Source of the DNA: Pseudomonadota bacterium
GTDB taxonomy: Bacteria > Pseudomonadota > Gammaproteobacteria > Burkholderiales > Burkholderiaceae_C
Length of the DNA: 52,866 nucleotides
Direction of reading: 5' to 3'
Assembly (NCBI GenBank): GCA_963205125.1
Contig: CAUJJO010000067.1
Location: 1 to 52,866 of the forward strand
Shown here: one piece after another, positions 5,378-25,342 of the stretch
How positions within the stretch are numbered: position 1 is the stretch's first letter
Layout: every line of letters begins with the position of its first letter
The notes under the pieces: generated by a model
Database searches by the model: none
Told to the model about the DNA's origin: nothing
What the model saw: only the letters and a program-made list of their open reading frames with translations
Made by a program: the position numbers and the translations under genes

Positions 5378-5419
5378 AAAGGGTTGGGGGGCCGAGCCCG
5401 GGCCGATCCTGCCCAGTGC

Positions 5420-5453: not shown

Positions 5454-5454
5454 C

Positions 5455-6047: not shown

Positions 6048-6102
6048 GCAGAAGGGCTGGCGATCACCCTCTGGCATCCGGATACAGCGATTGATTGCCT
6101 CA

Positions 6103-6125
6103 TTCTCCGTATCTGATGCGGAGAA
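6103..6125. promoter_or_regulatory. Palindromic operator-like site upstream of fic
   Basis: A 23-bp near-perfect palindrome with arms TTCTCCG (6103-6109) and CGGAGAA (6119-6125) around ATCTGAT. Its right flank GCGGAGAAAAGCT (6118-6130) recurs exactly at 6172-6184, inside the first codons of fic. A -10-like TCTAAT at 6153-6158 would start transcription close to the ATG at 6165. The Fic protein ends in a winged-helix-like segment, so self-repression at this site is a reasonable inference. Confidence 0.6.
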
Positions 6126-6164
6126 AAGCTTTCCTTTGCGGCGAATCGAGCGTCTAATCGCCGC

Positions 6165-8098: not shown

Positions 8099-8252
8099 AA
8101 CGGCTCCCTGGCGCGGTTGATCGTAATCGTCATGAATCGCTCGCTTGGTCCGGATTTGCTTATGAAAACTCGGTCTGTCGAGTGCAATCGGGCGACCAGA
8201 TACTCGCTACCCTCGTCACGGCCCGCAAGAGGGCACGCCGATCGGAATTCAC

Positions 8253-9170: not shown

Positions 9171-11074
9171 TGGAACTCCTGACGGAACTTCCGACGCAAC
9201 TTCCGCTGCAGCGGCAGGACGCCCCCGCCCCGAAGAGCCTGCTGCGCTTCATCACCTGCGGCTCGGTCGACGACGGCAAGAGCACCCTCATCGGGCGCCT
9301 GCTCTACGACAGCAAGACCCTGCTGCAGGACCAGCTCGACGCCGTCGCGCAGGATTCGCGCAAGTGGGGCACGCAGGGCGAGGCCATCGACTTCGCGCTG
9401 CTCGTCGACGGCCTGGCCGCCGAGCGCGAGCAAGGCATCACCATCGACGTCGCCTACCGCTACTTCGCCACCGCGCGGCGCAAGTTCATCGTCGCCGACA
9501 CCCCCGGCCACGAGCAGTACACGCGCAACATGGTCACCGGCGCCTCCGGCGCGGACCTGGCCGTCATCCTCGTCGATGCGCGCAAGGGCGTGCTCGAGCA
9601 GACGCGCCGGCACAGCTGCCTCGTGCAGCTCATCGGCATCCGCCAGGTCGTGCTCGCCATCAACAAGATGGACCTCGTCGGCCACGACGAAGAGGTCTTC
9701 GCGCGCATAGCCGCCGAGTACCGCGCCTTCGCCGCACGCATCGGGCTGGCACAGGTCACGAGCATCCCGATCTCGGCGCTCAGCGGCGCCAACATGACCG
9801 AGCCTAGTGCCGCCATGCCCTGGTACCAGGGTCCGGCGCTGCTGCCGCTGCTGGAGGACTGCGAGGTCGACGAGACGCGGCTGCAGGCCAAGCCGCTGCG
9901 CCTGCCGATCCAGTGGGTGAACCGCCCGAACCTGGACTTTCGCGGCTACTGCGGCCAGCTCGCCAGCGGCGTGCTGCAGCCGGGCCAGCGCGTGCGCATC
10001 CTGCCCTCGGGCCGCAGCACGCGCGTGGCGCGGCTCGTCGGCCTGCACGGCGACGCGCCGCTGGCGCTGGCCGGCGAGTCGGTGACGATCACGCTTGAGG
10101 ACGAGGTCGACGTCTCGCGCGGCGACATCCTCTGCGCCGAGGACAGCCCGGCCGAAGTCGCCGACCAGTTCGAGTGCACGCTGGTGTGGATGGCCGAGGA
10201 GCCGATGCTGCCCGGGCGGCCCTACCTGGTGAAGCTCGGCACCCGCACCGTGGGCGCCACCGTCACCGAGCCCAAGTACAAGCTCAACGTCAACACGCTC
10301 GAGCACCTGGCGGCCAAGCAGCTCGAGCTCAACGAGATCGGCGTCTGCAAGCTGGCGCTGGACCGCGCCGTGCCCTTCGACGCCTACGCCGAGAACCGCA
10401 CGACCGGCGGCTTCATCGTCATCGACCGCATGACGAACAACACCGTGGGCGCGGGCATGCTGCACTTCGCGCTGCGGCGGGCGCACAACATCCATCCGCA
10501 GCACCTGGACGTCGACCAGGCCGCGCGCAGCGCGATCAAGGGGCAGCAGCCCGTCGTGCTGTGGTTCACCGGGCTCTCGGGGGCCGGCAAGAGCACGATC
10601 GCCAACCTGGTCGAGAAGAAGCTGCTCGCCCAAGGGCGGCACAGCTACCTGCTGGACGGCGACAACCTGCGCCACGGCCTGAACAAGGATCTCGGCTTCA
10701 CCGCCGCCGACCGCGTCGAGAACATCCGCCGCGTGGCCGAGGTGGCGCGGCTGATGGTGGACGCCGGGCTGATCGTGCTCACCGCCTTCATCAGCCCTTT
10801 TCGCGCCGAGCGCCGCATGGCGCGCGCGCTGCTGCCCGAAGGCCAGTTCATCGAGGTGCACGTGGACACGCCGCTGGACGTGGCCGAGGCGCGCGACGTG
10901 AAGGGCCTCTACGCCAAGGCGCGCCGCGGCGAGCTGAAGAACTTCACCGGCATCGACTCGCCCTACGAGCCGCCCGAGGCCCCGGAGCTGCGCGTGGACA
11001 CCGCGACCATGAGCGCCGAGGACGCCGCCGAGCGCGTGCTGGCGCTGCTGCGGCAGCGCGGCGTGATCGGCTGA
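9170..11074 (+). CDS. cysN: Bifunctional sulfate adenylyltransferase subunit 1 / adenylylsulfate kinase (CysNC)
   Basis: A 634-residue fusion. The N-terminal part is the CysN GTPase: P-loop GSVDDGKST at 31-39, DTPGHEQYT near 109 and NKMD near 166, followed by two beta-barrel domains. From about residue 460 a CysC kinase domain follows, with P-loop GLSGAGKST near 468-476 and the family motif FISPFRAER. CysN fuels APS synthesis with CysD; CysC phosphorylates APS to PAPS. Both halves keep their nucleotide motifs, so both activities are expected. ATG at 9170 overlaps the cysD stop. Confidence 0.96.
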
Positions 11075-11129
11075 GGGGCGGCGCGCCTTCCACGCCATCC
11101 ACAGCTTCCACGTCTTCCGATCGAGGACC

Positions 11130-11918
11130 ATGGACTTCGAGTGGATCCACGTCGTTGCGGGCCTTGGCGTCGGCTTCGTCGTCGGCATGACCGGCGTCGG
11201 CGGCGGCGCGCTGATGACGCCCATCCTCGTGCTGCTGCTGGGTGTCGCGCCGACGGTGGCCATAGGCACCGACCTGTGGTTTGCCGCGCTCACCAAGCTG
11301 GCCGGCGGCGCGCTGCACCACAGCCGCGGCGTCGTCGACTGGCAGGTGCTGCGCCGCCTCTGCGCGGGCAGCCTGCCGACCTCGGCGGCGCTGCTGCTGT
11401 GGCTGCAGCAGGGCGGCATCACGCCGATGCGCAGCGCCTTCGTGCTGCACCTGCTGGGCGCGGTGCTGCTGCTGACCGCCGCGGCGATGCTGCTCAAGGG
11501 CCGCGTGCACGCCCGCGGGCGCATGCTGCGCCTGCACGATGCGGCGCGCTTCAAGCAATGGCAACCCGCGCTCACGGTGGCTGCCGGCGCGGTGCTCGGC
11601 GCGCTGGTGACGCTGACCTCGGTCGGCGCCGGGGCGCTGGGTGCCGTGATGCTGCTCTACCTCTACCCGCTGCGCATGACGCCGCCGCGCCTGGTCGCCA
11701 CCGACATCGTGCACGCGGTGCCGCTGACGCTGCTGGCCGGCAGCGGCCACGCGCTGCTCGGGCACGTCGAGCTCGGCCTGCTCGCGCAACTGCTGCTGGG
11801 CTCGGTGCCCGGCGTGCTGCTCGGCGCGGCGGCCGCGCACCGCGCGCCGGAGCGCCTGCTGCGCCCGGGCATCGCGCTCATGCTGGTCGTCGTCGGCGCT
11901 CGCCTCGTCACGGCCTGA
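11130..11918 (+). CDS. TauE/SafE family sulfite/anion exporter
   Basis: A 262-residue membrane protein with about seven to eight helices. It starts with GLGVGFVVGMTGVGGGALMTPIL, the TSUP/TauE glycine-rich signature, and repeats a related motif GALVTLTSVGAGALGAVML in the second half, the internal duplication of this family. Family members export sulfite or organosulfonates or take up anions. It lies 55 bases downstream of cysNC on the same strand, so a role in sulfur anion movement is likely but not proven. Confidence 0.9.
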   Translation: MDFEWIHVVAGLGVGFVVGMTGVGGGALMTPILVLLLGVAPTVAIGTDLWFAALTKLAGGALHHSRGVVDWQVLRRLCAGSLPTSAALLLWLQQGGITPMRSAFVLHLLGAVLLLTAAAMLLKGRVHARGRMLRLHDAARFKQWQPALTVAAGAVLGALVTLTSVGAGALGAVMLLYLYPLRMTPPRLVATDIVHAVPLTLLAGSGHALLGHVELGLLAQLLLGSVPGVLLGAAAAHRAPERLLRPGIALMLVVVGARLVTA

Positions 11919-12033
11919 AGCGGCGCCTCGCCGCAGGCAAAGTCACCCCCGGCGGCGTGGATTAGCGGGCAGGCGCATCGCGTACGATGCGCGCGAAAGC
12001 AAGCCTGCACCTCCCTCCTTGGATGAGTCCGCC

Positions 12034-12393
12034 ATGAGCACCGCCAGCTACGACCCCGCGCTCGACGACGAAGAGTTCTTTGCCTACGAAGGCCCGCCCG
12101 AGCTGCGCAAGCCGGTCCTCGAAGCCTTGTCGCAGGTGATCGACCCCGAGCTCGCGATGAACATCGTCGACCTCGGCCTCGTCTACTTCATCAGCATCCA
12201 CGACAAGGAGGTGCGTGCGCACGTGACCATGACCTCCGCCGCCTGCCCGGTGGCCGACATCATCGTCGAGGACACGCGTCACGCGCTGATCGACACGATC
12301 CCCGACGCCAAGGTCGACGTCGAGCTGGTGTGGGAACCCGAGTGGTCGCCCGACCGCATCAGCACGCGCGCTCGCCGCATCATGGGCGGATGA
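12034..12393 (+). CDS. MIP18/DUF59 family Fe-S cluster assembly protein
   Basis: A 119-residue protein of the PaaD/SufT-like MIP18 family: LSQVIDPELAMNIVDLGLVYFI near residue 35 and MTSAACPVADIIVEDTRHAL near 73, with the conserved reactive cysteine. Such proteins help mature Fe-S proteins. ATG 12034 is preferred since GGATGAG lies six bases upstream; a TTG at 12019 would add five residues without a ribosome site. A -10-like TACGAT is at 11983-11988. The stop overlaps the start of the next gene (ATGA), so the two are coupled. Confidence 0.9.
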   Translation: MSTASYDPALDDEEFFAYEGPPELRKPVLEALSQVIDPELAMNIVDLGLVYFISIHDKEVRAHVTMTSAACPVADIIVEDTRHALIDTIPDAKVDVELVWEPEWSPDRISTRARRIMGG

Positions 12394-13526
12394 GCACCGG
12401 CCCCAAACCCCTGTCGCCGGCCGCGCGGCTGGCGATTCCGCTGCTCGTCGTGCTGGTGGCCAGCGCGCTGGTCAGCGGCATCAGCGGCGGCCTGATCCGC
12501 GCGGGCTGGGCGCTTCCCGCCTTCGACGGCTTTCGCTGGGTCGCCCCCGCCGTCATCTCGCACGCCGCGCTGATGATCGGCGGCTTCCTCGGCACCGTCA
12601 TCAGCATCGAGCGCGCGGTCGCGGTGCGGCTGCGCCTGGCCTTTGCCGCGCCGATCACCGCGGGCCTGGCCTCGGTCTGCATCCTCGCCGGTGCGCCGCT
12701 TGCCGGCCACGTGCTGCTGCTCGTGGCCTCGCTGGTCTTCATCGTCGTCAACGTCATCATCGTGCAGCGCCAGCAGGCGGCGCACACGGTGCTGCTGCTG
12801 CTCTCGGCCGCGGCCTGGGCGGTGGGCAACGTGCTGGCGCTGGTCGACGCCGCCGACCTCGTCGCCCTGCCCTGGTGGTTCGGCTTCCTCGTGCTGACCA
12901 TCGCCGCCGAGCGGCTCGAGATGACGCGCCTGATGCGCCGCCCGCGCATCGTCAACCTCGCCTTTCACGCCTGCGTCGTGCTGCTGATGCTGGGTGCGGC
13001 GCTCTCGGTCGTCGACGCGCGCTCGGGTGGAGTGCTCTATGGCGTGGCGCTCGTGCTGTTTTCGGTCTGGCTGCTGCGCTACGACATCGCGCGGCGCACC
13101 GTGCACACCGAGGGCCTGAGCCGCTTCATGGCCGTGTGCCTGCTCGCCGGCCACACCTGGCTGCTGGTGGCGGGGCTCGCCTGGGCGGCGACGGCGCTGG
13201 GCCTGCCGCTGCGCGACACCGCGCTGCACGCCATCGGCCTCGGCTTCGTGATCTCGATGGTGATGGGCCACGCGCCCGTCATCCTGCCGGCGGTGGCGCG
13301 CGTACGCCTGCTCTACGGCTGGCCCTTCTACCTGCCGCTCATCACGCTGCACCTGACGCTCATCGTTCGCCTGGCCGGCGGCCTGGTCGACGACCGCTGG
13401 CGCAGCTTCGGTGCGGCCGGCAACGCCGTGGCCATCGCCTGGTTCGCGCTGACCGTCATCGGCTCCATCTTCGCCGCGCGGCGGCAGGCGCAGCAGCGCC
13501 TGGCGCGCACCCGCGCGCGCGCCTGA
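12390..13526 (+). CDS. Polytopic membrane protein, possibly NnrS-related
   Basis: A 378-residue protein with roughly ten to twelve hydrophobic helices. I do not recognise a firm family. Histidines lie in or at the ends of helices (VISHAALMIGGFLGTVISIE near residue 53, GLGFVISMVMGHAPVILP near 293, FYLPLITLHLTLI near 320), a pattern that recalls NnrS-type heme/copper membrane proteins linked to nitric oxide, but this is only a resemblance. It overlaps the MIP18-family gene by four bases, so it may depend on or serve metal-cofactor maturation. Start ATG 12390. Confidence 0.6.
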   Translation: MSTGPKPLSPAARLAIPLLVVLVASALVSGISGGLIRAGWALPAFDGFRWVAPAVISHAALMIGGFLGTVISIERAVAVRLRLAFAAPITAGLASVCILAGAPLAGHVLLLVASLVFIVVNVIIVQRQQAAHTVLLLLSAAAWAVGNVLALVDAADLVALPWWFGFLVLTIAAERLEMTRLMRRPRIVNLAFHACVVLLMLGAALSVVDARSGGVLYGVALVLFSVWLLRYDIARRTVHTEGLSRFMAVCLLAGHTWLLVAGLAWAATALGLPLRDTALHAIGLGFVISMVMGHAPVILPAVARVRLLYGWPFYLPLITLHLTLIVRLAGGLVDDRWRSFGAAGNAVAIAWFALTVIGSIFAARRQAQQRLARTRARA

Positions 13527-13690
13527 GGCTTGAGCCGCCGCAAGCCGCGTCCATTTGACGCGGCGCGCGGCGCGGCCGGCGGCGACTTTCACGCGCGCAG
13601 CGGCTTACAGTTCGCCCGGCAGGGCGCGGCGCACCGGCACAGCGCCTTCGCCTCGCCCCCCATTCCCATGACTTCTTCCGGAATCGCCCC

Positions 13691-15778
13691 ATGAGCAGCG
13701 TCCGCTACGAGCTGCGCGGTGCCACCGCGCTCATCACCCTGGACTACCCGCCCGTCAACGGCCTGGGCGCGGCGCTGCGCAGCGGCATCGTGCAGGCGCT
13801 CGAACAGGCGCTGGCCGACGGCTCGGTGCAGGCCATCGTGCTCGCCGGCAGCGAGCGCGCCTTCTCCGGCGGCGCCGACGTGAAGGAGTTCGGCACCTCG
13901 CTGGCGACGCAGGAGCCGCGCCTGCCCGCCGTCATCGCCGCGCTCGAGAACGCCGCCAAGCCGGTGGTCGCCGCCATCGGCGGCGTCTGCATGGGCGGCG
14001 GGCTCGAGCTCGCGCTCGGCGCGCACTACCGCGTGGCGCGCGCCGACGCGCAGCTCGCGCTGCCCGAGGTCAAGCTCGGGTTGATGCCGGGGGCCGGCGG
14101 CACGCAGCGGCTGCCGCGCGCGATCGGCGTGGCTCGGGCGCTCGAGATGATCGTCAGCGGCGCGACGATGAAGGCCAAGGCCTTCGAAGGCACGGCGCTG
14201 CTGGACGCCGTGGTCGAGGGCGACCCCGTTCCCGCCGCGCTCGAACTCGCGCAGCAGGTCGTCGCGCAAGGCCTGCCGCGCAAGCGCATCCGCGACCTGG
14301 TGATCGACGACGCGGGCGCGCCGGCGGCGCTGCAGGCGATGCGCGAGTCGGTGGCCAAGGGCTCGAAGTTCCTGCCGGCACCGGGCAAGTGCATCGACGC
14401 CGTCGAGCTCTGCCTGACCACGCCCTTCGACGAGGGCCTCGCGCGCGAGCGCGAGACCTTCCTCGCGCTCATGAGCACGCCCGAGGCGCGCGCGCTGCGC
14501 CACATCTTCGGCGCCGAACGCGCGGCGAGCAAGGTGCCCGGCATCCCCGAAGGCACGGCGCTGCGCACCATCGCGCGCGTCGGCGTCATCGGCGCCGGCA
14601 CCATGGGCGCCGGCATCGCCATGAACTTCCTCTCCGCCGGCATCCCGGTCGTGCTGCTCGAGATGAAGCAGGACGCGCTGGACCGCGGTGTCGCGACCAT
14701 CCGCCGCAACTACGAGGCGACGGTGAAGAAGGGCAAGCTGAAGGCCGAGCAGCTCGAGAAGAACATGGCGCTGCTTGCGCCCACGCTGTCCTACGAGTCC
14801 TTCAAGGACGTCGACCTCGCGATCGAGGCGGTGTTCGAGAACATCGACGTGAAGCGCCAGGTCTTCGGCACGCTCGACACGGTGTGCAAGCCCGGCGCCA
14901 TCCTCGCCTCCAACACCTCCTACCTCGACGTCGACGCCATCGCCGGCTTCACGCAGCGCCCGCAGGACGTGCTGGGCCTGCACTTCTTCAGCCCGGCCAA
15001 CGTGATGCGCCTGCTCGAGGTCGTGCGCGGCGCGAAGACCGCGCCCGACGTGCTCGCCACCTGCATGGCGCTGGCCAGGAAGATCGGCAAGATGGCCATC
15101 GTCTCCGGCGTCTGCGACGGCTTCATCGGCAACCGCATGCTCGCGCGCTACAACGCCGCGGTGGCCGGGCTGATCGCCGCGGGCGCCTCGCCGCAGCAGC
15201 TCGACGGCGCGCTGCAGGCCTTCGGCATGGCGATGGGCCCCTGCCGCGTCGGCGACCTCGCGGGCCTGGACATCGGCTGGGCCACGCGCAAGCGCCGCGC
15301 CGAAGAAGCCGGCGTCCCCTTCGTGCCCATCATCGCCGACAAGCTCTGCGAAGCCGGGCGCTTCGGCCAGAAGACCGGGGCCGGCTGGTACCGCTACGAG
15401 GCCGGCTCGCGCGAGCCGCTGCCCGACCCGGTGACGCAGCAGATCATCGACGCCTACCGCGCCGAGCGCGGCATCGTGCCGCGCGCGGTCGGCGACGCCG
15501 AGATCGTCGAGCGCTGCATGTTCGCGCTGGCCAACGAGGGCGCGCGCATCCTCGAGGAAGGCATCGCCGCGCGGGCGTCGGACATCGACCTCGTCTACCT
15601 CAACGGCTACGGCTTCCCGCGCCACCGCGGCGGGCCGATGTTCAACGCCACGCTCGTCGGCCTGCCCGAAGTCGTCAAGGCGCTGCAGCGCTTCGCCGCC
15701 GAGCCGGGCGCCGAAGCCTTCTGGCAGCCGGCGCCGCTGCTGCTGAAGCTCGCCGCCGAGGGCAAGGGTTTCGGCTGA
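13691..15778 (+). CDS. 3-hydroxyacyl-CoA dehydrogenase / enoyl-CoA hydratase (FadB/FadJ-like)
   Basis: A 695-residue bifunctional beta-oxidation enzyme. Residues 1-190 are a crotonase domain with SGGADVKEFG and GGVCMGGGLELALG for the oxyanion hole and catalytic glutamate E119-type PEVKLGLMPGAGGTQR. From about 295 a Rossmann domain starts with GVIGAGTMGAGIA, followed by the HADH motif HFFSPANVMRLLEVV. The C-terminal domains include GFIGNRML and GYGFPRHRGGPM. It hydrates enoyl-CoA and oxidises 3-hydroxyacyl-CoA. No thiolase gene is adjacent, so it likely works with an enzyme encoded elsewhere. Confidence 0.95.
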   Translation: MSSVRYELRGATALITLDYPPVNGLGAALRSGIVQALEQALADGSVQAIVLAGSERAFSGGADVKEFGTSLATQEPRLPAVIAALENAAKPVVAAIGGVCMGGGLELALGAHYRVARADAQLALPEVKLGLMPGAGGTQRLPRAIGVARALEMIVSGATMKAKAFEGTALLDAVVEGDPVPAALELAQQVVAQGLPRKRIRDLVIDDAGAPAALQAMRESVAKGSKFLPAPGKCIDAVELCLTTPFDEGLARERETFLALMSTPEARALRHIFGAERAASKVPGIPEGTALRTIARVGVIGAGTMGAGIAMNFLSAGIPVVLLEMKQDALDRGVATIRRNYEATVKKGKLKAEQLEKNMALLAPTLSYESFKDVDLAIEAVFENIDVKRQVFGTLDTVCKPGAILASNTSYLDVDAIAGFTQRPQDVLGLHFFSPANVMRLLEVVRGAKTAPDVLATCMALARKIGKMAIVSGVCDGFIGNRMLARYNAAVAGLIAAGASPQQLDGALQAFGMAMGPCRVGDLAGLDIGWATRKRRAEEAGVPFVPIIADKLCEAGRFGQKTGAGWYRYEAGSREPLPDPVTQQIIDAYRAERGIVPRAVGDAEIVERCMFALANEGARILEEGIAARASDIDLVYLNGYGFPRHRGGPMFNATLVGLPEVVKALQRFAAEPGAEAFWQPAPLLLKLAAEGKGFG

Positions 15779-15815
15779 AGCCCGCAGCGCCGCTGCCGCG
15801 CTGCGGACAGCGCGC

Positions 15816-15920
15816 GTGGAGCTCCAGGAAGCGCTGCTCGATGTTGCGCCGGCCGCGGTGGCAGCGCTCGATCAGTGCCTCGACGGTCTGCTTGAAGCCG
15901 CGGAGTCAGCGAACAGCTAG
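15816..15920 (+). other. Short acidic reading frame in the fadB-lysR gap, coding status unclear
   Basis: The 187-base gap between the FadB-like gene and the convergent lysR contains a 34-codon frame starting GTG at 15816 and ending TAG at 15920. It would encode an acidic helix (VELQEALLDVAP through LLEAAESANS). The opposite strand over the same stretch also reads without stops as a basic helix (FKQTVEALIERCHRGR). Neither has a good ribosome binding site. It may be a gene remnant; I give it no function. Confidence 0.2.
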
Positions 15921-15965
15921 CACGGCGCTCTCGTCGGCGAGGCGACCGCGACACAGCGCGGACGC

Positions 15966-16856
15966 TCACCACGCCGCGCGTGCATAACGCGCGACGAGGA
16001 AGTCCAGCAGCACGCGCACGGCGTGCGGGAGGTGGCGGCGGCTCGGGTAGAGCGCCTGCACGGCCAGCGGCGGCAGCGACCACTGCGGCAGCACCGGGCG
16101 CAGCGTTCCTGCGGCCAGGGCCTGGGCGCAGAGGTAGAGCGGCAGCATGGCGATGCCCGCGCCGGCCAGCGCGGCGGCCTGCAGGGAGACCGCCTCGTTG
16201 GCGCCCAGCGCCAGCGCGATGCGCACCGTCTCCGTGCGCCCTGCGCGCGTGAGCTGCCAGCTCGCGCGGCCGTGATGCAGGTGGCCCAGGCAGCGGTGCG
16301 CGGCGAGATCGGCCGGACGCCTCGGCGTGCCCGCGGCCTTCAGGTAGGCCGGCGAGGCGACGAGGACGGAGGCACAGTCCGCCAGGCGCCGCGCGACCAG
16401 CCCGGGATCGGGCTCCAGCGTGATGCGGATGGCGAGGTCGATGCGCGCATCGATGAGGTCGGTCGTGCGGTCCTCGAGCAGCAGTTCGATGCGCAGCTGC
16501 GGGTGCTGCGCGAGGAAGTCGGCCAGCGTCGGCGCGAGCTGCGCGGCGCCGAAGGAGGTGCTGCAGGTCAGGCGCAGCACACCGCGCAGGATGCCGTCGG
16601 CCGGCACGACCTCGTTGCGCACGTCCTCGACCAGCTCCAGCACCGGCAGGCAGCGCCGCAGCGCCTGCTCGCCCGCCTCGGTGAGCGAGACGCGGCGCGT
16701 CGTGCGCTGCAGCAGGCGCACGCCCAGCCACTGCTCCAGCGCCGCGACGTGACGCGTGACCATCGCGCGCGACATGGCCAGCGCCTCGGCGCTGGCGCTG
16801 AAGCTGCCGCGGCGCGCCACCTCGACGAAGACCTGCATCGCGGCAAACCGGTCCAA
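15966..16856 (-). CDS. LysR-family transcriptional regulator
   Basis: A 296-residue LysR regulator. The N-terminal winged helix reads FVEVARRGSFSASAEALAMSRAMVTRHVAALEQWLGVRLLQRTTRRVSLT, and the rest is the periplasmic-binding-like effector domain. TTG at 16856 gives MDRFAAMQVF, the classical start of this subgroup (CrgA/AaeR-like), and has AGGTGA five bases upstream; GTG 16865 and ATG 16922 are alternatives. It is divergent from the MBL-fold gene at 17024, and LysR proteins usually control the divergent neighbour. A dyad that could be its binding site lies at 16877-16890. Confidence 0.92.
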   Translation of the reverse strand: MDRFAAMQVFVEVARRGSFSASAEALAMSRAMVTRHVAALEQWLGVRLLQRTTRRVSLTEAGEQALRRCLPVLELVEDVRNEVVPADGILRGVLRLTCSTSFGAAQLAPTLADFLAQHPQLRIELLLEDRTTDLIDARIDLAIRITLEPDPGLVARRLADCASVLVASPAYLKAAGTPRRPADLAAHRCLGHLHHGRASWQLTRAGRTETVRIALALGANEAVSLQAAALAGAGIAMLPLYLCAQALAAGTLRPVLPQWSLPPLAVQALYPSRRHLPHAVRVLLDFLVARYARAAW

Positions 16857-17918: not shown

Positions 17919-18845
17919 TCAGCGCCTGGCGGCCGGCCGCAGCACGCAGCAGTCGCGCCCGGCGGCCTTGGCGGCGTAGAGCGCTTCGTCGGCCTCGTGC
18001 AGCAGCTCGTCCTGGCTGCTGCAGTCGTCGATGGCGACCAGCCCGACCGAACAGGTGTAGCGCAGCTCGGGCCGCTCGGGCAGCGGCTGCGAAGCGCGCG
18101 TGGCCGACCCCAGGCGCTGCATCACGGCAACAGCCGCCTGCGCGCCGACGCCGGGCAGCAGCACGAGGAACTCCTCGCCGCCGATGCGGCCGATGACGTC
18201 GTCGCGCCGCATCACCGACATCAGCACGCGTGCGAAATCGCACAGCACCAGGTCACCGCGCTGGTGGCCGTGTTCGTCGTTGATGCGCTTGAAGTGGTCG
18301 AGGTCGATCAGCGCCAGCACGCCGCCCTCGCGCCGCGGCGGCTCCAGCGCCGCGGCCAGCGCCTGCATCACGTGGCGCCGGTTGCCAAGGCCCGTGAGCG
18401 GGTCGCTGCTGGCCTGGCGCTCTGCCAGATCACGCGCCAGGCGCAACTCGCGCTCGTCGGTGCGCAGGCCGGAGACATCCTGCGCGATGCACAGCATCGA
18501 GCCGTCCGGCAGCGTCTGCTCGGCCATCGAGAACCAGCGCCCGTCGTGCATGTCGCCCTCGAAGCTGCGCCAGGGCTGCTTGCCACGGCGGCTGGCCGCC
18601 GAGGCCAGCCAGGCCTCGAAGTCCGCTGCCTGGACCACGCTGCCGACGCCGCGGCGGCGTGCCTGGCGCATCGGTTCGACCCAGGTCGGGTGCGTGCCCT
18701 CGTCGACGCCGAAGACGCTTGCAAAAGCGTTGTTGCACCACAGCAGGCAGTCGCCCGCATCGAAGAGGGCGACCAGCATGGGGCTCGCGGCCAGGCCTGC
18801 CAGCAGGGTGCGGGCATGCGGCGCTGGGTCGGCTTCGAAGATCAT
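17919..18845 (-). CDS. PAS-GGDEF diguanylate cyclase
   Basis: A 308-residue cytoplasmic protein: a PAS-like domain at about residues 15-125 and a GGDEF domain from about 140. The catalytic motif is GGEEF, preceded by an intact product-inhibition site RRDD five residues before it. SDPLTGLGNRRH marks the GGDEF start. It should make c-di-GMP from GTP in response to an unknown signal. It is convergent with the MBL-fold gene (13-base gap) and divergent from the binding-protein/kinase cluster at 18974, which suggests a shared regulatory theme. Confidence 0.93.
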   Translation of the reverse strand: MIFEADPAPHARTLLAGLAASPMLVALFDAGDCLLWCNNAFASVFGVDEGTHPTWVEPMRQARRRGVGSVVQAADFEAWLASAASRRGKQPWRSFEGDMHDGRWFSMAEQTLPDGSMLCIAQDVSGLRTDERELRLARDLAERQASSDPLTGLGNRRHVMQALAAALEPPRREGGVLALIDLDHFKRINDEHGHQRGDLVLCDFARVLMSVMRRDDVIGRIGGEEFLVLLPGVGAQAAVAVMQRLGSATRASQPLPERPELRYTCSVGLVAIDDCSSQDELLHEADEALYAAKAAGRDCCVLRPAARR

Positions 18846-18973
18846 GGGAAACGCGTCAGAGCTGATTTTCGGCCGCGGCCGGGAAAACTTCAGCCCGCCG
18901 CGGGCGACGACCCGATGACGACCCGGCGTGCCGGCTCCACAGCCACTATGCTGCCACCGAAGCCCGCACCCGC

Positions 18974-19804
18974 ATGCCTGCCGTCCCCGCTCTCACCACC
19001 CTCGCCGCCCTCACCACCGCCTGCGCCCTTGTCGTCTTCGCCGCCGGCTCGGCGAAGGCGGCCCAGGCCGCGGCGGACGTCCCACCTGCGGCGGCGCCGG
19101 CACAGGCCGCGACGGCGGCGGCGGCCTCGGCGTCGGGCGAGCACACGGCCCCTGCCGCGGGCGGCGTGCTGCGCCTGGTCAGCATCGTGCCCCTCGAGCG
19201 CCCCTCGATGGTCGCCGAGCGCGCGCTGCTGGATCTCGCCTTCGCGCGCGCGCAACTGCACTACACGCTGGAGTTCAACCCGCCCGAGCGCGCGCTCGAG
19301 CGCATGCGCCAGGGCAGCGTCGACGGCGACGTGAGCCGCACCGAGCGCTTCGAGCAGTTTCTGCCCGCAGCGCTGCGGGTGCAGCCGCACCTGCAGAACG
19401 CGTTCCACTTCGCGTTCGGTCGCCCGTCCCTGCCACGGCTGGGCGGCTGGGCCGATCTGCAGCCCTACCGCGTGGCCTACGTCCGCGGCTTTCGAACGGT
19501 CGAGCAGCGGCTTTCCGGCGCGGCGCGGTGCGACGCCACCAGCACCGCGCAGGCCTGCCTGCAGATGGTCGAGCTGCAACGCGTCGACTGGTGCGTGCTC
19601 GGACTCCCCCGCAAGGGAGAACTGCCACCGGACCTGAGCCTCGTCAAGCCGCTGCAGGCGGTGCCGATCGACGCGGCGCGCATCTACCTGTGGCTGCGCC
19701 CGGAGCAGGGCGAAGCCGCCCGTCGCCTGGGCCAAGCCTTGCGGCAGCTCGAGCACAGCGGCGAGCTGCAAGCCCTGATGGCGGCCTATCGTCAGCCCGA
19801 CTAG
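18974..19804 (+). CDS. Periplasmic substrate-binding-like protein (SBP_bac_3 type), copy 1
   Basis: A 276-residue secreted protein. A hydrophobic signal sequence (to about residue 30) is followed by an Ala/Pro-rich linker to about 65. Then comes a family-3-like solute-binding fold: LRLVSIVPLERPSM, FNPPERALERMRQGSVDGDVSRTERFE, LGGWADLQPYRVAYVRGFRTVEQRL, and a terminal helix LEHSGELQALMAAYR. No permease or ATPase gene is nearby. It is immediately followed by a second binding-like protein and a hybrid kinase, so a sensing role is more likely than transport. Only two bases separate its stop from the next in-frame ATG. Confidence 0.82.
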   Translation: MPAVPALTTLAALTTACALVVFAAGSAKAAQAAADVPPAAAPAQAATAAAASASGEHTAPAAGGVLRLVSIVPLERPSMVAERALLDLAFARAQLHYTLEFNPPERALERMRQGSVDGDVSRTERFEQFLPAALRVQPHLQNAFHFAFGRPSLPRLGGWADLQPYRVAYVRGFRTVEQRLSGAARCDATSTAQACLQMVELQRVDWCVLGLPRKGELPPDLSLVKPLQAVPIDAARIYLWLRPEQGEAARRLGQALRQLEHSGELQALMAAYRQPD

Positions 19805-19814
19805 GATGCCGGGC

Positions 19815-20609
19815 ATGCTTGTCGCACGGCTCGAACGGCGTCACCTCCAGCCCGGCCTGCGCGCGCTGGCGCTGCTGGCGGCTCTGCTCGGGTCGGCGCC
19901 TGCGCTCCCTGCGGCGCAGACCATCACCGTTGCGGCCGAGGACGACTGGGCGCCCTATTCCTTCGTGGCACCCGGGCAGACGCAGCCGCAGGGCCTGGCC
20001 GTGGACATCGTGCGCGAGGCCTTCGCGACGCAAGGCATCGAGGTGCGCTTCGTCGGCGTGCCCTTCACGCGCTGCATGTTCCTTGCACGCACCGGGCAGG
20101 TCGCGGGCTGCTTCAACGTGACACAGGTCGCCGACCTGCGCGACGCCTACATCTGGCATGTCACGCCGATGTTCCACGAGGAGCTGGCGATCTTCGGCCG
20201 CAAGGGCAGCCCGCGAACGGACCTCGGCCTCGCCGACCTCGAAGGCAAGCGCGTGGGCTTCACGCTCGGCTACACCTACCCGACGGCCTTCCGCCAGAAC
20301 CCGCGTGTCGAGAAGGTGGCCGCCAAGGGTGACCAGCAACTGCTGGAACTGCTGCTGGCTGGACGCGTCGACTACATCCTCGCCAACACCGCACCGGCCC
20401 GGTTGCGCCTGTCGACGCAGCCGCAGATGCGCGCGGCAATCGAGCGCGTGGGGGTGATCTCGCAGGACGGCTTCTGGCTCGCCTTCACGCGCGCCGACCC
20501 GCAGGGCGAGCAACTGGCGGCCCGCTTCGAGCAGGGTCTTGCCGCGCTGCGTGCCAGCGGCCGGCTGGCGGCGATGCAGGCTGCGCTGCACAAGCGCCTG
20601 GGCTCCTGA
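19815..20609 (+). CDS. Periplasmic substrate-binding-like protein (SBP_bac_3 type), copy 2
   Basis: A 264-residue secreted protein with a signal sequence ending near PALPAAQ. The fold is clearer than in copy 1: ITVAAEDDWAPYSF, GLAVDIVREAFATQGIEVRFVGVPFTRCMFLARTGQVAGCFNVT, LEGKRVGFTLGYTYP and LLLAGRVDYILAN are standard family-3 solute-binding segments. ATG 19815 has AGGA eight bases upstream; ATG 19806 is also possible. It lies 18 bases before the kinase start and belongs to the same operon. No transporter partner is present. The two copies are divergent in sequence, so they probably bind different ligands. Confidence 0.88.
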   Translation: MLVARLERRHLQPGLRALALLAALLGSAPALPAAQTITVAAEDDWAPYSFVAPGQTQPQGLAVDIVREAFATQGIEVRFVGVPFTRCMFLARTGQVAGCFNVTQVADLRDAYIWHVTPMFHEELAIFGRKGSPRTDLGLADLEGKRVGFTLGYTYPTAFRQNPRVEKVAAKGDQQLLELLLAGRVDYILANTAPARLRLSTQPQMRAAIERVGVISQDGFWLAFTRADPQGEQLAARFEQGLAALRASGRLAAMQAALHKRLGS

Positions 20610-20627
20610 AGACCGCAAGGCGCAGCC

Positions 20628-23465
20628 ATGGCTCCGTACGCCCAAGCGCAGCCGGCACAGCAGGGAAAGGCGGCCGCACGGGCCTCGATCGCGCGGCGCA
20701 TCATCGTCCTCATCGTCGTCACCAGCGCACTGCTGTCGACGCTGGCCACCGCCTACTACCTGCACCAGGAGTACCGCCGCGGCGTCGACGAGCTGAACGC
20801 GCAGTTCGACGGGATCGCGCTCAGTCACGTGCCGGCGCTTGCCGCCAACGTCTGGGTGCTCGACCACGAGCAGACGCGCGAGCAGCTCGAGGGCATCCGG
20901 CGCCTGCCCGGCATCGTCGGCGCCACGGTGATCATCGACCCGCCCTGGCCGGCGCTGGAGCAGGAGCAGGCGCAGGGGAAGGCAGTCGCCGACCGCGGCG
21001 CGACGCTGCGCCGCGACTTCGAGCTCAGGTATCGCGCCGCCGGCACCGCCGGCACCGCCGGCACCGATGGCGCAAGCAGCGCAGGCGGCCCGCCGATCGG
21101 CACGCTGCGCGTGACGGCCTCGCTCGACGGCCTGAAGCAGCGCCTGTGGGCCACCGGCGGGCAGATCTTCGGCCTCGAGCTGCTGCGCGCCACGGTGCTC
21201 TCGACGGTGCTCATCCTCGGCCTGCGCCGGCTCGTGACGCGGCGCCTCGAGCGCATCGCCGACTACACCGCGGGCCTGAGCCTGGACAAGCTCGACCAGC
21301 CCGAGCACGCGCCGCCGGGGGCCGCCCAGGGCGGCGACGACATCGACCGGCTCGGCCAGGCCATCGACGGCATGCGCCGGCAACTGCGCGAGGAGGTCGA
21401 CCGCCGCATCGACGTCGAGGCGCGCTCGCGCGGGCTCGAGGTCGAGAAGCAGGCCGCCGAGCTTGCCAACGCGACGAAGAGCGAGTTCCTCGCGTCGATG
21501 AGCCACGAGATCCGCACGCCGATGAACGCCGTGATCGGCATGGCCAACCTCGCGCTGCAGGGCCCGCTGCCGCAGCGCGAGCGCGGCTACGTCGAGCGCG
21601 TGCTGTCGTCGGCGCAGCTGCTGCTGGGCATCCTCAACGACATCCTCGACTACTCCAAGGTCGAGGCCGGCATGCTGCAGATCGAGCATGCCGAGTTCGA
21701 GCTGCAAGGCGTGCTCGACGAGGTCGCCAACCTGGTCGGCCTGCGCGTCGAGGAGAAGGGCCTCGAACTCGTCTTCGACCTGCCCGACGAGCTGCCGCGC
21801 CCGCTCCTGGGCGACGCGCTGCGGCTGCGCCAGGTGCTGCTCAACCTCTGCAGCAACGCCGTCAAGTTCACGCAGCAGGGCGCGGTGACGCTGCGCGTCA
21901 CCACCCGCGAGCGCGGCCCGCGCGAGATCGTGCTCGGATTCGAGGTGATCGACAGCGGCATCGGCATGAGTGCCGCCGAGACGGACACGCTCTTTCGGCC
22001 CTTCACGCAGGCCGACCGTTCGATCGCGCGGCGCTTCGGCGGCACCGGCCTCGGGCTTGCGATCAGCCAGCGGCTGATGCAGCTCATGGGCTCGCGCATC
22101 CGCGTGCAGAGCGTGCCGGGGCAAGGCAGCTGCTTTGCCTTCGACCTGCGCCTGGGCGTGCCCGCGCACTCGGGCGCGGCATCCCGCGGCGCGGGCGGCA
22201 GGCTGCAGGGGCGGCTGCTCGTCGTCGACGACGCCGAGGCCGCGCGCCTGGTGCTGCGGGCGATGGGCACGCGCCTGGGCTTTCGGGTCGATGCCGTCGC
22301 CGACGGCGAGGCCGCGCTGCAGGCGGTGTCCGCGGCCGAGGCGGCAGGGCAGCCCTACCGCATCGTGTTGATGGACTGGCGCATGCCGGGCATGGACGGC
22401 GCCGAGTGCGCGCGCCGCATCGCCGCCGGCACCACGCAGCCGCCCTGCGTGCTGATGGTGAGCGCCCTCGGACGCGACGAGATGCTGCGCCGGCTGCAGG
22501 CGCAGGCGCTGCCGGTGGCCGCCGTGCTGACCAAGCCGGTCACGCCTTCGTCGCTGATCGATGCCTGCCAGGGCGCGCTTGGCCTGCAGCCGGCGCGGTC
22601 ATCGTCGTCACCGTCGTCGTCGTCGTCATCGTCGCCGACGTCCGACCGCACTGCGCGCTACCGGCAACGGCTCGAGGGCCTGCGCGTGCTGCTGGCCGAG
22701 GACAACGAGGTCAACGTCGAGCTCGCCGTCGACCTGCTGCAGCGCGTGGGCCTGCGCGTGCTCGTCGCGCGCGACGGCGAGCAGGCGCTGGCGGCGCTGC
22801 GCGCGCACCCGGTGGATGGCGTGCTGATGGACTGCCAGATGCCCGTCGTCGACGGCCTCAGCGCCGCGCGCCGCATCCGCGAGGAGCCGGCCTGGCGCAG
22901 CCTGCCGGTGATCGCGATGACCGCCAACGCGATGGTCGGCGACCGCGAGCAGGCGCTGGCCGCCGGCATGAACGACCACGTGCCCAAGCCCATCGACGTC
23001 GAGGCCTTGTACGCGGCGCTGGCGCGCTGGCTGCCGCAGGCGCCCGGCGGCGGTAGCGGCGAGACCCCGGGCGCCGCCGAGCCCGGCGGCCTGCCGCCGC
23101 TGCCCGGCATCGACGCCGAGGCCGGCCTGCAGCGCGCGGCGGGCCAGCAGGCGCTCTACCGCCGGCTGCTGCGGCTGTTCGAGCGCCAGCTGCAGCGCTT
23201 CGTGCCCGAGCTGCGCGCGGCGATCGAGGCCGGCGACTATGCCGCGGCGTCCGGGCTCGTGCATGCGCTCAAGGGCGCGGCGTCGACCGTCGGCGCGCAC
23301 GAGATCGACCTCGCGGCGCAGGCGCTCGAGCAGGCGCTTGCCACCGACGCCAGCGGCGCGGCGCGGCGCGCGGCGGTGCAGACGCTGGACGACGAGATCG
23401 ACCGCGTGCGCCCGGGCCTGCAGGCGCTCACTGGACTCCCCTCCGCGCTGCACGCTGCCGGATGA
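20628..23465 (+). CDS. Hybrid sensor histidine kinase with two receiver domains and an Hpt domain
   Basis: A 945-residue inner-membrane kinase. TM1 is at about 25-45, a periplasmic sensor region runs to about 178, and TM2 is at about 180-198, followed by a HAMP-like linker. The H-box SHEIRTPMN carries H293, and the ATPase has FGGTGLGLAI. Receiver 1 has D583 (LMDWRMPG), receiver 2 has D735 (LMDCQMP), and a C-terminal Hpt domain has H879 (VHALKGAAS). This is a complete His-Asp-Asp-His phosphorelay scaffold, BvgS/BarA-like, needing an external response regulator. A poly-serine linker joins the two receivers. It is the third gene of an operon with two orphan binding proteins, which may present the ligand. 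Confidence 0.95.
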   Translation: MAPYAQAQPAQQGKAAARASIARRIIVLIVVTSALLSTLATAYYLHQEYRRGVDELNAQFDGIALSHVPALAANVWVLDHEQTREQLEGIRRLPGIVGATVIIDPPWPALEQEQAQGKAVADRGATLRRDFELRYRAAGTAGTAGTDGASSAGGPPIGTLRVTASLDGLKQRLWATGGQIFGLELLRATVLSTVLILGLRRLVTRRLERIADYTAGLSLDKLDQPEHAPPGAAQGGDDIDRLGQAIDGMRRQLREEVDRRIDVEARSRGLEVEKQAAELANATKSEFLASMSHEIRTPMNAVIGMANLALQGPLPQRERGYVERVLSSAQLLLGILNDILDYSKVEAGMLQIEHAEFELQGVLDEVANLVGLRVEEKGLELVFDLPDELPRPLLGDALRLRQVLLNLCSNAVKFTQQGAVTLRVTTRERGPREIVLGFEVIDSGIGMSAAETDTLFRPFTQADRSIARRFGGTGLGLAISQRLMQLMGSRIRVQSVPGQGSCFAFDLRLGVPAHSGAASRGAGGRLQGRLLVVDDAEAARLVLRAMGTRLGFRVDAVADGEAALQAVSAAEAAGQPYRIVLMDWRMPGMDGAECARRIAAGTTQPPCVLMVSALGRDEMLRRLQAQALPVAAVLTKPVTPSSLIDACQGALGLQPARSSSSPSSSSSSSPTSDRTARYRQRLEGLRVLLAEDNEVNVELAVDLLQRVGLRVLVARDGEQALAALRAHPVDGVLMDCQMPVVDGLSAARRIREEPAWRSLPVIAMTANAMVGDREQALAAGMNDHVPKPIDVEALYAALARWLPQAPGGGSGETPGAAEPGGLPPLPGIDAEAGLQRAAGQQALYRRLLRLFERQLQRFVPELRAAIEAGDYAAASGLVHALKGAASTVGAHEIDLAAQALEQALATDASGAARRAAVQTLDDEIDRVRPGLQALTGLPSALHAAG
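22599..22635 (+). repeat. TCG/TCA trinucleotide tract encoding poly-serine linker
   Basis: About 12 near-perfect TCG/TCA triplets with a few CCG interruptions encode a serine-rich linker between the two receiver domains of the hybrid kinase. Unit gain or loss would keep the frame and alter only linker length. Confidence 0.75.
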
Positions 23466-23549: not shown

Positions 23550-24410
23550 CTACAGGCCGCGCACCATCTCCACGTGCGCGATGCCGGCCTCGTCGAACTC
23601 GGGGCCGCGCGGCTGGAAGCCTGCGCGCAGGTAGAAGGCGGCGGCGCTGGTCTGCGCGTGCAGCAGCACCTCGCGCTCGCCGCGGGCGCGCGCGGCGCCC
23701 ATCAGCGCGTCCAGCACCGCGCGGCCGATGCCGCTGCCGCGCACCGAGGCCAGCACCGCCATGCGGCCGATCTTGGCCGTGCCCGGCACATGCTCGAGCA
23801 GCCGCCCGGTGGCCAGCGGCATCCCCATGCGGTTGTAGGCCACCGCATGCACGCAGCCGGCGTCGGCGGCGTCCCACTCCATCTCGGCGGGGATCCTCTG
23901 CTCGTCGATGAAGACGGCGCTGCGGATCGGCCGCGCGTCGCCTTCCAGCTCCGCCCAGGAGCCCAGCCGCACCCGCGCCGCAGGCTCGCCCGCCTCGAAG
24001 CCCAGCAGCGCCTGCCGCAGCAGCGCCGGCACCGGCCTGGGCTTGCCCGTGGACGGGTCGACGAAGACGTAGACGATCTCGCCGTGCACGAGGCGCGCGT
24101 CCTCGCGCAGGCATGCGCAGGCGATGGCGATCGAGGAGCGCCCGACGTGCGTGCAGCGCAGGCCCAGCGCGAGCAAGTCCTCGTGCCGCGCCGGCGCCTC
24201 GTACTCGAGCGTGGCCTTGCGCACGCGAAGCTCGCCCTGCAGCTGCGCCATCGTCCGGCGGTAGGGCAGCGCCTGCGCGCGGAAGTAGCCGGCGATCGCG
24301 CTGTCGAACCAGGCTAGGTAGTGGCTGCTGAAGACGACGCCGTCCATGTCGACTTCGGCGCGGCGCACGCGCAGGCGCTCGAGGTGACGAAAACCGTGGG
24401 CAGGGCTCAT
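23550..24410 (-). CDS. Acyl-CoA thioesterase-GNAT acetyltransferase fusion
   Basis: A 286-residue two-domain protein. Residues 1 to about 135 form a hot-dog thioesterase of the YbgC/FadM type (VDMDGVVFSSHYLAWFDSA, then RKATLEYEAPARHEDLL). Residues about 150-286 form a GNAT domain, with the acetyl-CoA loop region IGRMAVLASVRGSGIGRAVLDALM and a LHAQTSAAAFYLRAGF tail like ElaA/YjcF relatives. Substrates of both halves are unknown. ATG 24410 overlaps the stop of the upstream hydrolase gene (ATGA), indicating coupled translation. Confidence 0.88.
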   Translation of the reverse strand: MSPAHGFRHLERLRVRRAEVDMDGVVFSSHYLAWFDSAIAGYFRAQALPYRRTMAQLQGELRVRKATLEYEAPARHEDLLALGLRCTHVGRSSIAIACACLREDARLVHGEIVYVFVDPSTGKPRPVPALLRQALLGFEAGEPAARVRLGSWAELEGDARPIRSAVFIDEQRIPAEMEWDAADAGCVHAVAYNRMGMPLATGRLLEHVPGTAKIGRMAVLASVRGSGIGRAVLDALMGAARARGEREVLLHAQTSAAAFYLRAGFQPRGPEFDEAGIAHVEMVRGL

Positions 24411-25342
24411 GGCAGCAATTGTTGCTTCATCGCCGCCGCGGCCGCGTCCAGCGCCAGCGTCGCTTCCCTGATCGCCCGGCCCATCTTGATGAAGTCGTGA
24501 GTCACCCCGCGGTAGAGCTCGAGCGTGACGGCCACGCCGGCCGCGCGCAGGCGATCGGCGTAGGCCAGGCCCTCGTCGAGCAGCGGGTCGCACTCGGCGA
24601 GGATGACGCAGGCGCTGGCCACGCCCTCGAGATCCTCGGCCTGCAGCGGCGCGAAGCGCCAGTCCTCGCGCTGGCCGCGCGGGATGTACTGGTCGAAGAA
24701 CCAGGCGATGGCATCGTCGTCGAGCAGGAAGCCGCGCGCAAAGCGCCGGTGCGACGCGCTGTCGGCATGTGCCGCGGTGCCCGGCGTGATCAGCAACTGC
24801 AACGCAAGAGGCAGGCCGAGCTCGCGCGCGTGGATCGCCGCCACGGCGGCCAGCGTGCCGCCCGCGCTGTCGCCGCCGACGCCAAGCCGCGCGCCGTCGA
24901 GCCCGAATTCATCGCCATGCTCGGCCAGGTGCTGCAAGGCCGCCCAGCTGTCGTCGACGGCGGCCGGGAACGGGTGCTCGGGCGCCAGCCGGTAGTCCAG
25001 CGCGAGCACCGCGCAGCCGCTGCGCAGCGCGAGCTGGCGGCACAGGCTGTCGTGCGTCTGCAGGCCGCCGATGACGAAGCCGCCGCCGTGCAGGTAGAGC
25101 AGCACCGGCAGCCGCGCATGCGAAGGCGCGTAAAGCCGCGCCGGCCGCGGCCGGCCGTCCCCGCCCGGCAGGTCGAGCGCCTGCACCCGCGGCAGCGGCG
25201 CCCGCGGCAGATCGAGCACCTCGGCCGCGGCCACGTAGGCCAGCCGCGCCTGCGGTGGCGACAGGTGATGCAGCGGCGTGCGCCGCGCCCGCCCGATGCG
25301 CTGCAGCAGCTCGGCCATGGCGGGGGTCAACATCGGGTTCAT
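24407..25342 (-). CDS. Alpha/beta hydrolase, hormone-sensitive-lipase family
   Basis: A 311-residue esterase/lipase. It has the HSL oxyanion motif HGGGFVIGG, the nucleophile elbow GDSAGG, ECDPLLDEG for the catalytic aspartate, and GVTHDFIKM for the catalytic histidine. Family enzymes hydrolyse short acyl esters. ATG 25342 gives MNPMLTPAMAELLQRI, as relatives begin; the in-frame upstream stretch runs into the tRNA gene and is not coding. It is the first gene of a two-gene minus-strand operon with the thioesterase-GNAT protein. Confidence 0.93.
   Translation of the reverse strand: MNPMLTPAMAELLQRIGRARRTPLHHLSPPQARLAYVAAAEVLDLPRAPLPRVQALDLPGGDGRPRPARLYAPSHARLPVLLYLHGGGFVIGGLQTHDSLCRQLALRSGCAVLALDYRLAPEHPFPAAVDDSWAALQHLAEHGDEFGLDGARLGVGGDSAGGTLAAVAAIHARELGLPLALQLLITPGTAAHADSASHRRFARGFLLDDDAIAWFFDQYIPRGQREDWRFAPLQAEDLEGVASACVILAECDPLLDEGLAYADRLRAAGVAVTLELYRGVTHDFIKMGRAIREATLALDAAAAAMKQQLLP

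What the first reader, a model, noticed from the sequence alone, without database searches (positions are those of the whole stretch)
17919..23465. Candidate sensory system: two orphan binding proteins, a four-step hybrid kinase and a divergent diguanylate cyclase
Two family-3-like periplasmic binding proteins with different sequences lie immediately upstream of a 945-residue kinase with H293, D583, D735 and H879 all intact, and no transporter gene is present. This suggests the binding proteins hand ligands to the kinase's periplasmic domain (about 46-178), so that one relay reads two signals. A PAS-GGDEF cyclase with intact GGEEF and I-site is divergent at 128 bases, linking the relay to c-di-GMP. 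BvgS-like kinases fuse such domains; here they are separate genes, which I have not seen described as a set. No response regulator gene is adjacent.
Basis: partly seen in the sequence, partly recalled or inferred. Interest (0 to 1): 0.75.

Follow-up and report, generated by a model that had tools for sequence, protein, structure and literature searches.

The report
Binding-protein-fed kinase with extra input
A bacterial membrane sensor that probably listens to the outside world through a separate ligand-catching protein encoded next to it, a recurring pairing here carrying an unusual second catcher of different ancestry.

Summary
In detail: a PAS-GGDEF cyclase (minus strand), two binding proteins with signal-like N-termini (SBP1, SBP2) and a 945-aa CHASE5 hybrid kinase lie where stated; all named residues are intact; no ABC permease was found on this contig. 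Interpretation partly supported. (1) A binding-protein gene beside a CHASE5-like sensor is a recurring module: 24 of 29 such kinase/cyclase ORFs in loci seeded on this sensor, against 1 of 25 other kinase/cyclase ORFs in preset stretches of the same genomes and 2 of 30 in control loci. (2) SBP2 looks cognate: it and the kinase share their four nearest relatives among the loci compared. (3) SBP1 is an outsider: 3 relatives in the protein search, another SBP clade, distances anti-correlated with the kinase's. (4) Two SBPs at one sensor are rare: the window, L162 (recent duplication) and L030 (two dissimilar SBPs flanking a GGDEF sensor). 'Two signals, one relay' is possible, unproven. (5) The cyclase link is not conserved in the congener holding a 70% homologue; yet 15 of 45 CHASE5-like sensors are GGDEF proteins. 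Most likely, contact of SBP2 with CHASE5 sets kinase output; SBP1 is an added input or a relic.

The parts
17919..18845 (-). PAS_7-GGDEF diguanylate cyclase, 308 aa, intact GGEEF and I-site RxxD; divergent from SBP1 at 128 bases; link to the relay not conserved where tested
   Evidence: 70% homologue in congener G005 without SBP or kinase on its 7.1-kb contig
18846..18973 (.). 128-base divergent intergenic region between DGC and SBP1; no sigma-70-type consensus found
18974..19804 (+). SBP1: divergent type II binding protein with signal-like N-terminus and no Pfam hit; from a different SBP clade than SBP2; 3 relatives besides itself in the protein search
19806..20609 (+). SBP2: SBP_bac_3 protein with signal-like N-terminus; likely cognate partner of the kinase by co-phylogeny; family with invariant Cys90/Cys102
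20628..23465 (+). 945-aa hybrid histidine kinase: hydrophobic stretch, CHASE5 periplasmic domain (residues 48-173), hydrophobic stretch, HisKA (H293), HATPase_c, REC1 (D583), REC2 (D735), Hpt (H879)
   Evidence: only CHASE5 match found in the own genome

Best explanation
SBP2 and the kinase are a cognate pair of a recurring module in which a free periplasmic SBP is read by a membrane sensor carrying a CHASE5-like domain. Ligand-loaded (or ligand-free) SBP2 docks on CHASE5 (residues 48-173), the signal crosses the membrane to HisKA, and phosphate passes from H293 to D583 and/or D735 to H879 and on to a response regulator encoded elsewhere. SBP1, a binding protein of another clade at the head of the gene row, is a later addition: either a second input to the same kinase or a leftover of another SBP-sensor pair. 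The divergent DGC is at most a co-regulated neighbour. Shown: genes, domains, residues, recurring neighbourhood, co-phylogeny. Inferred: one operon, docking, direction of signalling, relay path, SBP1's role.
For: 24 of 29 CHASE5-like HK/GGDEF ORFs in 30 loci seeded on this sensor have an SBP within 1.5 kb. Controls: 1 of 25 non-CHASE5 HK/GGDEF ORFs in 60 preset 20-kb stretches of 9 of the same genomes, and 2 of 30 in 20 loci around other kinases (Fisher p about 2e-9 and 1e-9). The one same-genome positive (L235) is itself a kinase with a weak CHASE5-profile match, and its SBP is the only one of this profile in those 1.2 Mb. SBP2's four nearest SBPs sit beside the kinase's four nearest CHASE5 sensors; r = 0.66 for SBP2, -0.57 for SBP1, the latter below all 1482 mismatched pairs. 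Over 39 pairs Mantel r = 0.34, reached by 0 of 5000 permutations; nearest SBP locus among the three nearest CHASE5 loci in 24 of 39, about 3.1 expected. L037, the closest relative seen in context, has a single SBP. L106, SBP1's nearest relative in the tree, lies 29 bases before another kinase with a weak CHASE5-profile match. No permease on the contig.
Against: No physical contact was tested. Proximity need not mean function: in P. aeruginosa, SBPs encoded near AgtS and AruS showed no binding to those kinases (PMC11113362; abstract, introduction and discussion read). Co-phylogeny was not corrected for species relatedness; 3.4% of mismatched pairs reach SBP2's r, and own pairs scatter from -0.18 to 0.73. 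CHASE5-like calls rest on an in-house profile; Pfam confirms CHASE5 for the kinase and L162 but not at cut-off for L106, L191 or L030. Five of 29 CHASE5-like sensors have no SBP nearby. The kinase is the genome's only CHASE5 match found, which favours SBP1 using it. P0002 and P0006, close relatives of SBP1 and SBP2, show the same contig count and longest contig, so the tandem may be maintained in a sister.
Confidence: 0.65

Rival explanations
1. One reading: both SBPs dock on the same CHASE5 domain, so one relay integrates two ligands. (A branch of the best explanation.)
For: SBP1, SBP2 and kinase are tightly packed on one strand; the kinase is the only CHASE5 match found in a 92%-complete genome; L162 has two SBPs before one CHASE5 kinase; L030 has one SBP with and one without a Pfam hit, 35% identical, flanking one GGDEF sensor, which resembles the mixed pair here; fused tandem binding domains with different ligand preferences are known in CdgH (PMC5431781, abstract read).
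Against: SBP1's clade does not track this kinase (r = -0.57); L162's pair is a 79%-identical duplication; the closest relative seen has one SBP; two SBPs at 2 of 45 CHASE5-like ORFs and 1 of 7 in the weaker set.
Confidence: 0.32
2. SBP1 is a relic or passenger: the remains of another SBP-sensor pair whose sensor was lost, or an SBP serving some other receptor; only SBP2 matters for this kinase. (The other branch.)
For: Different clade, anti-correlated distances; nearest tree relative paired with a different kinase; 4 matches including itself in the protein search against 166 for SBP2, both from capped candidate lists.
Against: Open, uninterrupted frame with a 97%-identical relative (P0002); one base from SBP2; L030 shows that mixed SBP pairs recur.
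Confidence: 0.38
3. The SBPs are orphan transporter components or scavengers; their place beside the kinase is not functional.
For: 39 permease matches elsewhere in the genome could accept them; documented neighbours that do not interact (PMC11113362).
Against: 24 of 29 against 1 of 25 and 2 of 30 and co-phylogeny of SBP2 with CHASE5.
Confidence: 0.12
4. The divergent PAS-GGDEF cyclase is the dedicated output of the relay, coupling the signals to c-di-GMP.
For: 128-base divergent arrangement; 15 of 45 CHASE5-like sensors carry GGDEF directly, and L166 has a receiver-HD response regulator right after the kinase.
Against: The DGC has no receiver domain to take phosphate; its 70% homologue in G005 has no SBP or kinase in the 5.7 kb visible upstream; the GGDEF gene near the L037 pair is a different protein (35% over 195 aa, no PAS hit).
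Confidence: 0.15

Closest known systems
Adjacent SBP plus sensor kinase couples (LuxP-LuxQ, TorT-TorS, AioX-AioS; names recalled or seen in listings; PMC11113362 says 10 of 11 characterized couples are genetically associated)
   Same: Free periplasmic binding protein encoded next to a kinase it is thought to control.
   Different: Here the SBPs are SBP_bac_3-like, the sensor domain is CHASE5, and two SBPs of different clades precede one kinase.
BvgS/EvgS tandem Venus-flytrap kinases (PMC4352136, PMC5573083; seen in search listing only)
   Same: Two binding modules upstream of a phosphorelay kinase.
   Different: There the modules are fused to the kinase; here they are separate proteins and the kinase has its own periplasmic CHASE5 domain.
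CdgH of Vibrio cholerae (PMC5431781, abstract read)
   Same: Two tandem amino-acid-binding PBPb domains with different ligand preferences, in c-di-GMP signalling.
   Different: Fused to a diguanylate cyclase, no kinase.
NspS-MbaA (PMC5646818, PMC8967002; seen in search listing only)
   Same: Binding protein read by a membrane signalling protein.
   Different: Polyamine-binding SBP and a c-di-GMP enzyme as effector (recalled).
G242 pair (L037; taken as Aquincola tertiaricarbonis because P0129's contig length equals that of G242:C2)
   Same: SBP2 relative (72% over 229 aa) directly before a 909-aa CHASE5 kinase of the same architecture (58.6% over 256 sensor residues).
   Different: One SBP; no SBP1; a different GGDEF gene nearby.

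Membership tests
SBP-activated hybrid histidine kinase pair | SBP gene adjacent to the kinase gene | tested here: met
   repeated in relatives
SBP-activated hybrid histidine kinase pair | no transporter genes beside the SBP | tested here: met
   no permease match on C67; ATPase genes were not searched separately
SBP-activated hybrid histidine kinase pair | SBP binds the sensor domain and changes kinase output | not testable with these tools
   needs protein work
CHASE5 (PF17149) sensor | CHASE5 match over curated cut-off in the periplasmic stretch | tested here: met
   42 bits against cut-off 27, residues 48-173
SBP_bac_3 (PF00497), SBP2 | match over cut-off | tested here: met
   53.4 bits against 26.4
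SBP_bac_3 (PF00497), SBP1 | match over cut-off | tested here: not met
   no family; remote kinship only by profile
BvgS family | binding domains fused N-terminally to the kinase | tested here: not met
   separate ORFs with stops between them
NspS-MbaA type | sensor partner is a GGDEF/EAL protein | tested here: not met
   partner is a hybrid kinase; 15 of 45 CHASE5-like relatives do carry GGDEF
Two-SBP, one-sensor integrator | two SBPs at one sensor conserved in relatives | tested here: inconclusive
   2 of 45 CHASE5-like ORFs (WIN, L162), 1 of 7 in the weaker set (L030); a metagenome sister inferred from contig statistics only

The most novel reading that the evidence does not exclude
CHASE5 is a dedicated docking domain for free binding proteins, shared by kinases and c-di-GMP enzymes, and this locus is a split, two-input version: SBPs of two different clades compete for or jointly occupy one CHASE5 domain, so that one phosphorelay compares two ligands.
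Probability: 0.27. Interest if true: 0.65.

Novelty: new variant of a known kind. Interest (0 to 1): 0.47.

Why it matters
For most sensor kinases the signal is unknown, partly because a separate binding protein may catch it (argued in PMC11113362). If CHASE5 domains are generally read-out domains for neighbouring SBPs, ligands of a whole class of kinases and diguanylate cyclases could be found by screening the neighbouring SBP, which should be soluble and easy to assay. The two-clade pair here offers a natural test of whether one sensor domain can accept two different binding proteins.

Tried and rejected
A scan of genome contigs with the SBP1 alignment gave 21 pattern matches and no confirmed relative, although relatives exist, so that scan was insensitive. 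Of 404 plasmid records with a DNA match, the 20 listed cover mainly the kinase core. PDB sequence search with SBP1 gave 4 weak matches at E 0.015 or worse. 'CHASE5 domain' or 'PF17149' is in no paper of the held library; 'CHASE5' gave 26 papers, the 20 listed having unrelated titles; 'two periplasmic binding proteins' with 'histidine kinase' gave one paper, on a chemoreceptor. These searches cover only the held open-access library. The consensus scan found no sigma-70-type site and 2 terminator-like sites, 1.1 expected. The SBP1 model is too weak (mean pLDDT 52) for pocket analysis; the second structure job was not used. A tandem search with a mixed SBP profile (399 family genomes; 6 candidates scored per genome, list cut) added one tandem, L189, beside a PAS-GGDEF-EAL gene without Pfam CHASE5. 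The idea that the four genes form one conserved cassette was rejected. Contamination was checked only in part: the downstream flank (thioesterase-GNAT, esterase, RluA, SDR, PFK, peptidase) is syntenic with congener G013 (L147), so the contig fits the genus.

Limits of the counts. One search lists 59 places; the 30 fetched loci cover ranks 2 to 32 (two of these share a stretch or ORF with another) plus rank 37 (G240/L055), which was added after one search had shown an SBP there; L055 does not enter the 29, as its CHASE5 ORF has no kinase or GGDEF domain. The cut at rank 32 was made. Of 9 weaker places with about 1.4 kb on each side (L028-L036), 4 of 7 CHASE5-like kinase/GGDEF ORFs have an SBP; the remaining weaker places were not examined. 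The SBP and CHASE5 profiles were trained on the seeded loci, which favours detection there. In the seeded loci 7 of 23 non-CHASE5 kinase/GGDEF ORFs also lie within 1.5 kb of an SBP, in part the same SBPs as the CHASE5 partners. In the first control one of the two positives (L176) lies beside a CHASE5-SBP pair, and 1 of 2 CHASE5-like ORFs there has an SBP; that control comes mostly from congeners, which have few such SBPs, hence the second, same-genome control (60 stretches at preset round coordinates). The 40 of 45 figure includes the window and loci found through SBP1. Apart from proteins named the relatives are unnamed.

Full report
What is there. The window is contig C67 of a 3.8-Mb, 344-contig genome, 92% complete. 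Four ORFs match the finding: DGC 17919-18845 (-), SBP1 18974-19804 (+), SBP2 19806-20609 (+) and a 945-aa kinase 20628-23465 (+). The three plus-strand genes are separated by 1 and 18 bases, which suggests one operon (inference). Pfam gives PAS_7-GGDEF for the DGC, SBP_bac_3 for SBP2, and CHASE5-HisKA-HATPase-REC-REC-Hpt for the kinase; SBP1 has no family. H293, D583, D735, H879, GGEEF and RxxD are all present. GC content of the four genes (0.71-0.74) matches the window (0.72).

SBP1 is a real binding-protein relative. It is about 31% identical to SBP2, its profile aligns with SBP2's at 97.3% probability, a weak model resembles family-3 amino-acid-binding proteins, and its N-terminus is strongly hydrophobic. 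It is rare: 4 proteins in the large database, the window's own included, against 166 for SBP2, also counting its own; both searches scored only about 8000 best candidates.

The pairing recurs. I searched 250 genomes of the family with the kinase's first 271 residues (38 with a match, 59 places) and fetched 30 loci, essentially the 32 best places, with about 6-9 kb on each side where the contig allowed. In them 24 of 29 ORFs with a CHASE5-like stretch plus a kinase or GGDEF domain have an SBP gene within 1.5 kb, commonly directly upstream with overlapping or nearly touching ends, sometimes divergent or convergent. The five misses are L041, L052, L065, L066 and L069. Two controls: in 20 loci around other kinases of congeners and order relatives, 2 of 30 non-CHASE5 kinase/GGDEF ORFs have one; in 60 preset 20-kb stretches of 9 of the seeded genomes, 1 of 25. 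That one, L235, is a hybrid kinase with a weak match to the CHASE5 profile (5e-6) and no Pfam CHASE5; its SBP is the only ORF of this SBP profile in the 1.2 Mb. Fisher p is about 2e-9 and 1e-9. In a weaker set with short flanks it is 4 of 7. Bias notes are in Tried and rejected.

Which SBP belongs to this kinase. I built trees of the SBPs and of the CHASE5-like stretches from 39 relative pairs plus the window. SBP2's four nearest relatives (L037, L040, L038, L039) are the partners of the kinase's four nearest sensors. Distances correlate at r = 0.66 for SBP2 and -0.57 for SBP1; no mismatched pair of 1482 is as low as SBP1, while 3.4% of mismatched pairs reach SBP2's value. Own pairs range from -0.18 to 0.73, median 0.40, so the method is noisy for single loci. 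SBP1 groups with L106 and L050, SBPs that have their own kinases. Closer relatives of SBP1 (P0003, P0004 of Curvibacter) and of the kinase (P0126-P0128) exist, but their neighbourhoods were not on hand.

How unusual two SBPs are. Among 45 CHASE5-like ORFs two have two SBPs: the window and L162 (G472), whose SBPs are 79% identical to each other and 70-85% to the single SBPs of L166 and L067. In the weaker set L030 (G087) has an SBP on each side of a GGDEF sensor, 35% identical to each other, one with and one without a Pfam hit; Pfam does not confirm CHASE5 there. So two-SBP units arose by different routes: duplication in L162, combination of unlike SBPs here and in L030. P0002 (SBP1, 97%) and P0006 (SBP2, 90%) both come from 3 contigs with longest 3561 bases; I infer, without having seen it, that they share a contig and that a sister organism has the same tandem.

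History. In 36 congeners the best-scoring matches of SBP1 and SBP2 are 27% and 30% identical; whole-kinase hits at E 1e-100 in 24 congeners start at residue 151 or later, i.e. in the shared core. The downstream flank is conserved in order in G013. The module is therefore accessory in this genus, gained or widely lost.

Link to c-di-GMP. The divergent DGC has a 70% homologue in congener G005, near the end of a 7.1-kb contig with 5.7 kb visible on the side where SBP1 lies here and no SBP or kinase match there. L037 has a different GGDEF gene about 830 bases upstream. The DGC has no receiver domain. So the DGC is not shown to be part of the system. Yet the module class leans to c-di-GMP: 15 of 45 CHASE5-like ORFs carry GGDEF, and L166, with the same SBP-kinase order, continues with a receiver-HD response regulator (HD_5 match; HD-GYP-like function recalled).

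Mechanism. Most likely SBP2 docks on CHASE5 according to its ligand state and sets autophosphorylation of H293; phosphate then passes through a receiver and H879 to an unlinked regulator. SBP2's ligand is unknown. By hand comparison (recalled binding-site positions of LAO/HisJ, no computed superposition) SBP2 keeps an arginine where amino-acid SBPs hold the carboxylate but has Asn where they have the ammonium-binding Asp, so a classical amino acid is not assured. SBP1 is either a second ligand reader for the same sensor or a passenger. In favour of the former, this kinase is the only CHASE5 match found in the genome and mixed SBP pairs recur (L030).

Verdict. Ordinary in kind, since SBP-fed kinases are known and 10 of 11 characterized couples are genetically associated (PMC11113362; abstract, introduction and discussion read), but with two points of interest: a strong association of CHASE5-like sensors with free SBPs, on which searches found nothing in the held library, and a rare pair of unlike SBPs at one kinase. 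The same paper is the main caution, since three SBPs encoded near kinases there were not found to interact with them.

Noticed in passing
window 23550-24593 (-): A thioesterase (4HBT) and GNAT acetyltransferase fused in one ORF, kept beside the esterase gene in the five congener loci fetched around it (L147-L151).
   Followed up: partly
window 38480-41515 (+): A 1011-aa PAS-GGDEF-EAL protein, a second c-di-GMP gene in the window.
   Followed up: no
L046 (G268:C54) 6697-16001: Three SBP-CHASE5-like units within about 10 kb, two with GGDEF as effector and the third cut by the end of the stretch: a local expansion of the module.
   Followed up: no
L030 (G087:C272) 594-3590: An SBP on each side of a 482-aa GGDEF sensor, all on one strand with ends 19 bases apart or overlapping; the two SBPs are 35% identical and only one has a Pfam hit.
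   Followed up: partly
L189 (G264:C3) 2872-8221: Two tandem SBPs divergent from a 1229-aa PAS-GGDEF-EAL protein whose N-terminal part has no Pfam match; possibly another two-SBP input with a different sensor.
   Followed up: partly
L053 (G180) 4793-11331 and L125 (G334) 4246-11303: One SBP gene between a CHASE5-like GGDEF gene and a large hybrid kinase on the same strand: one SBP might serve two sensors.
   Followed up: no
SBP2 family alignment A4: Cys90 and Cys102 of SBP2 are invariant in all 26 aligned relatives, suggesting a disulfide.
   Followed up: no
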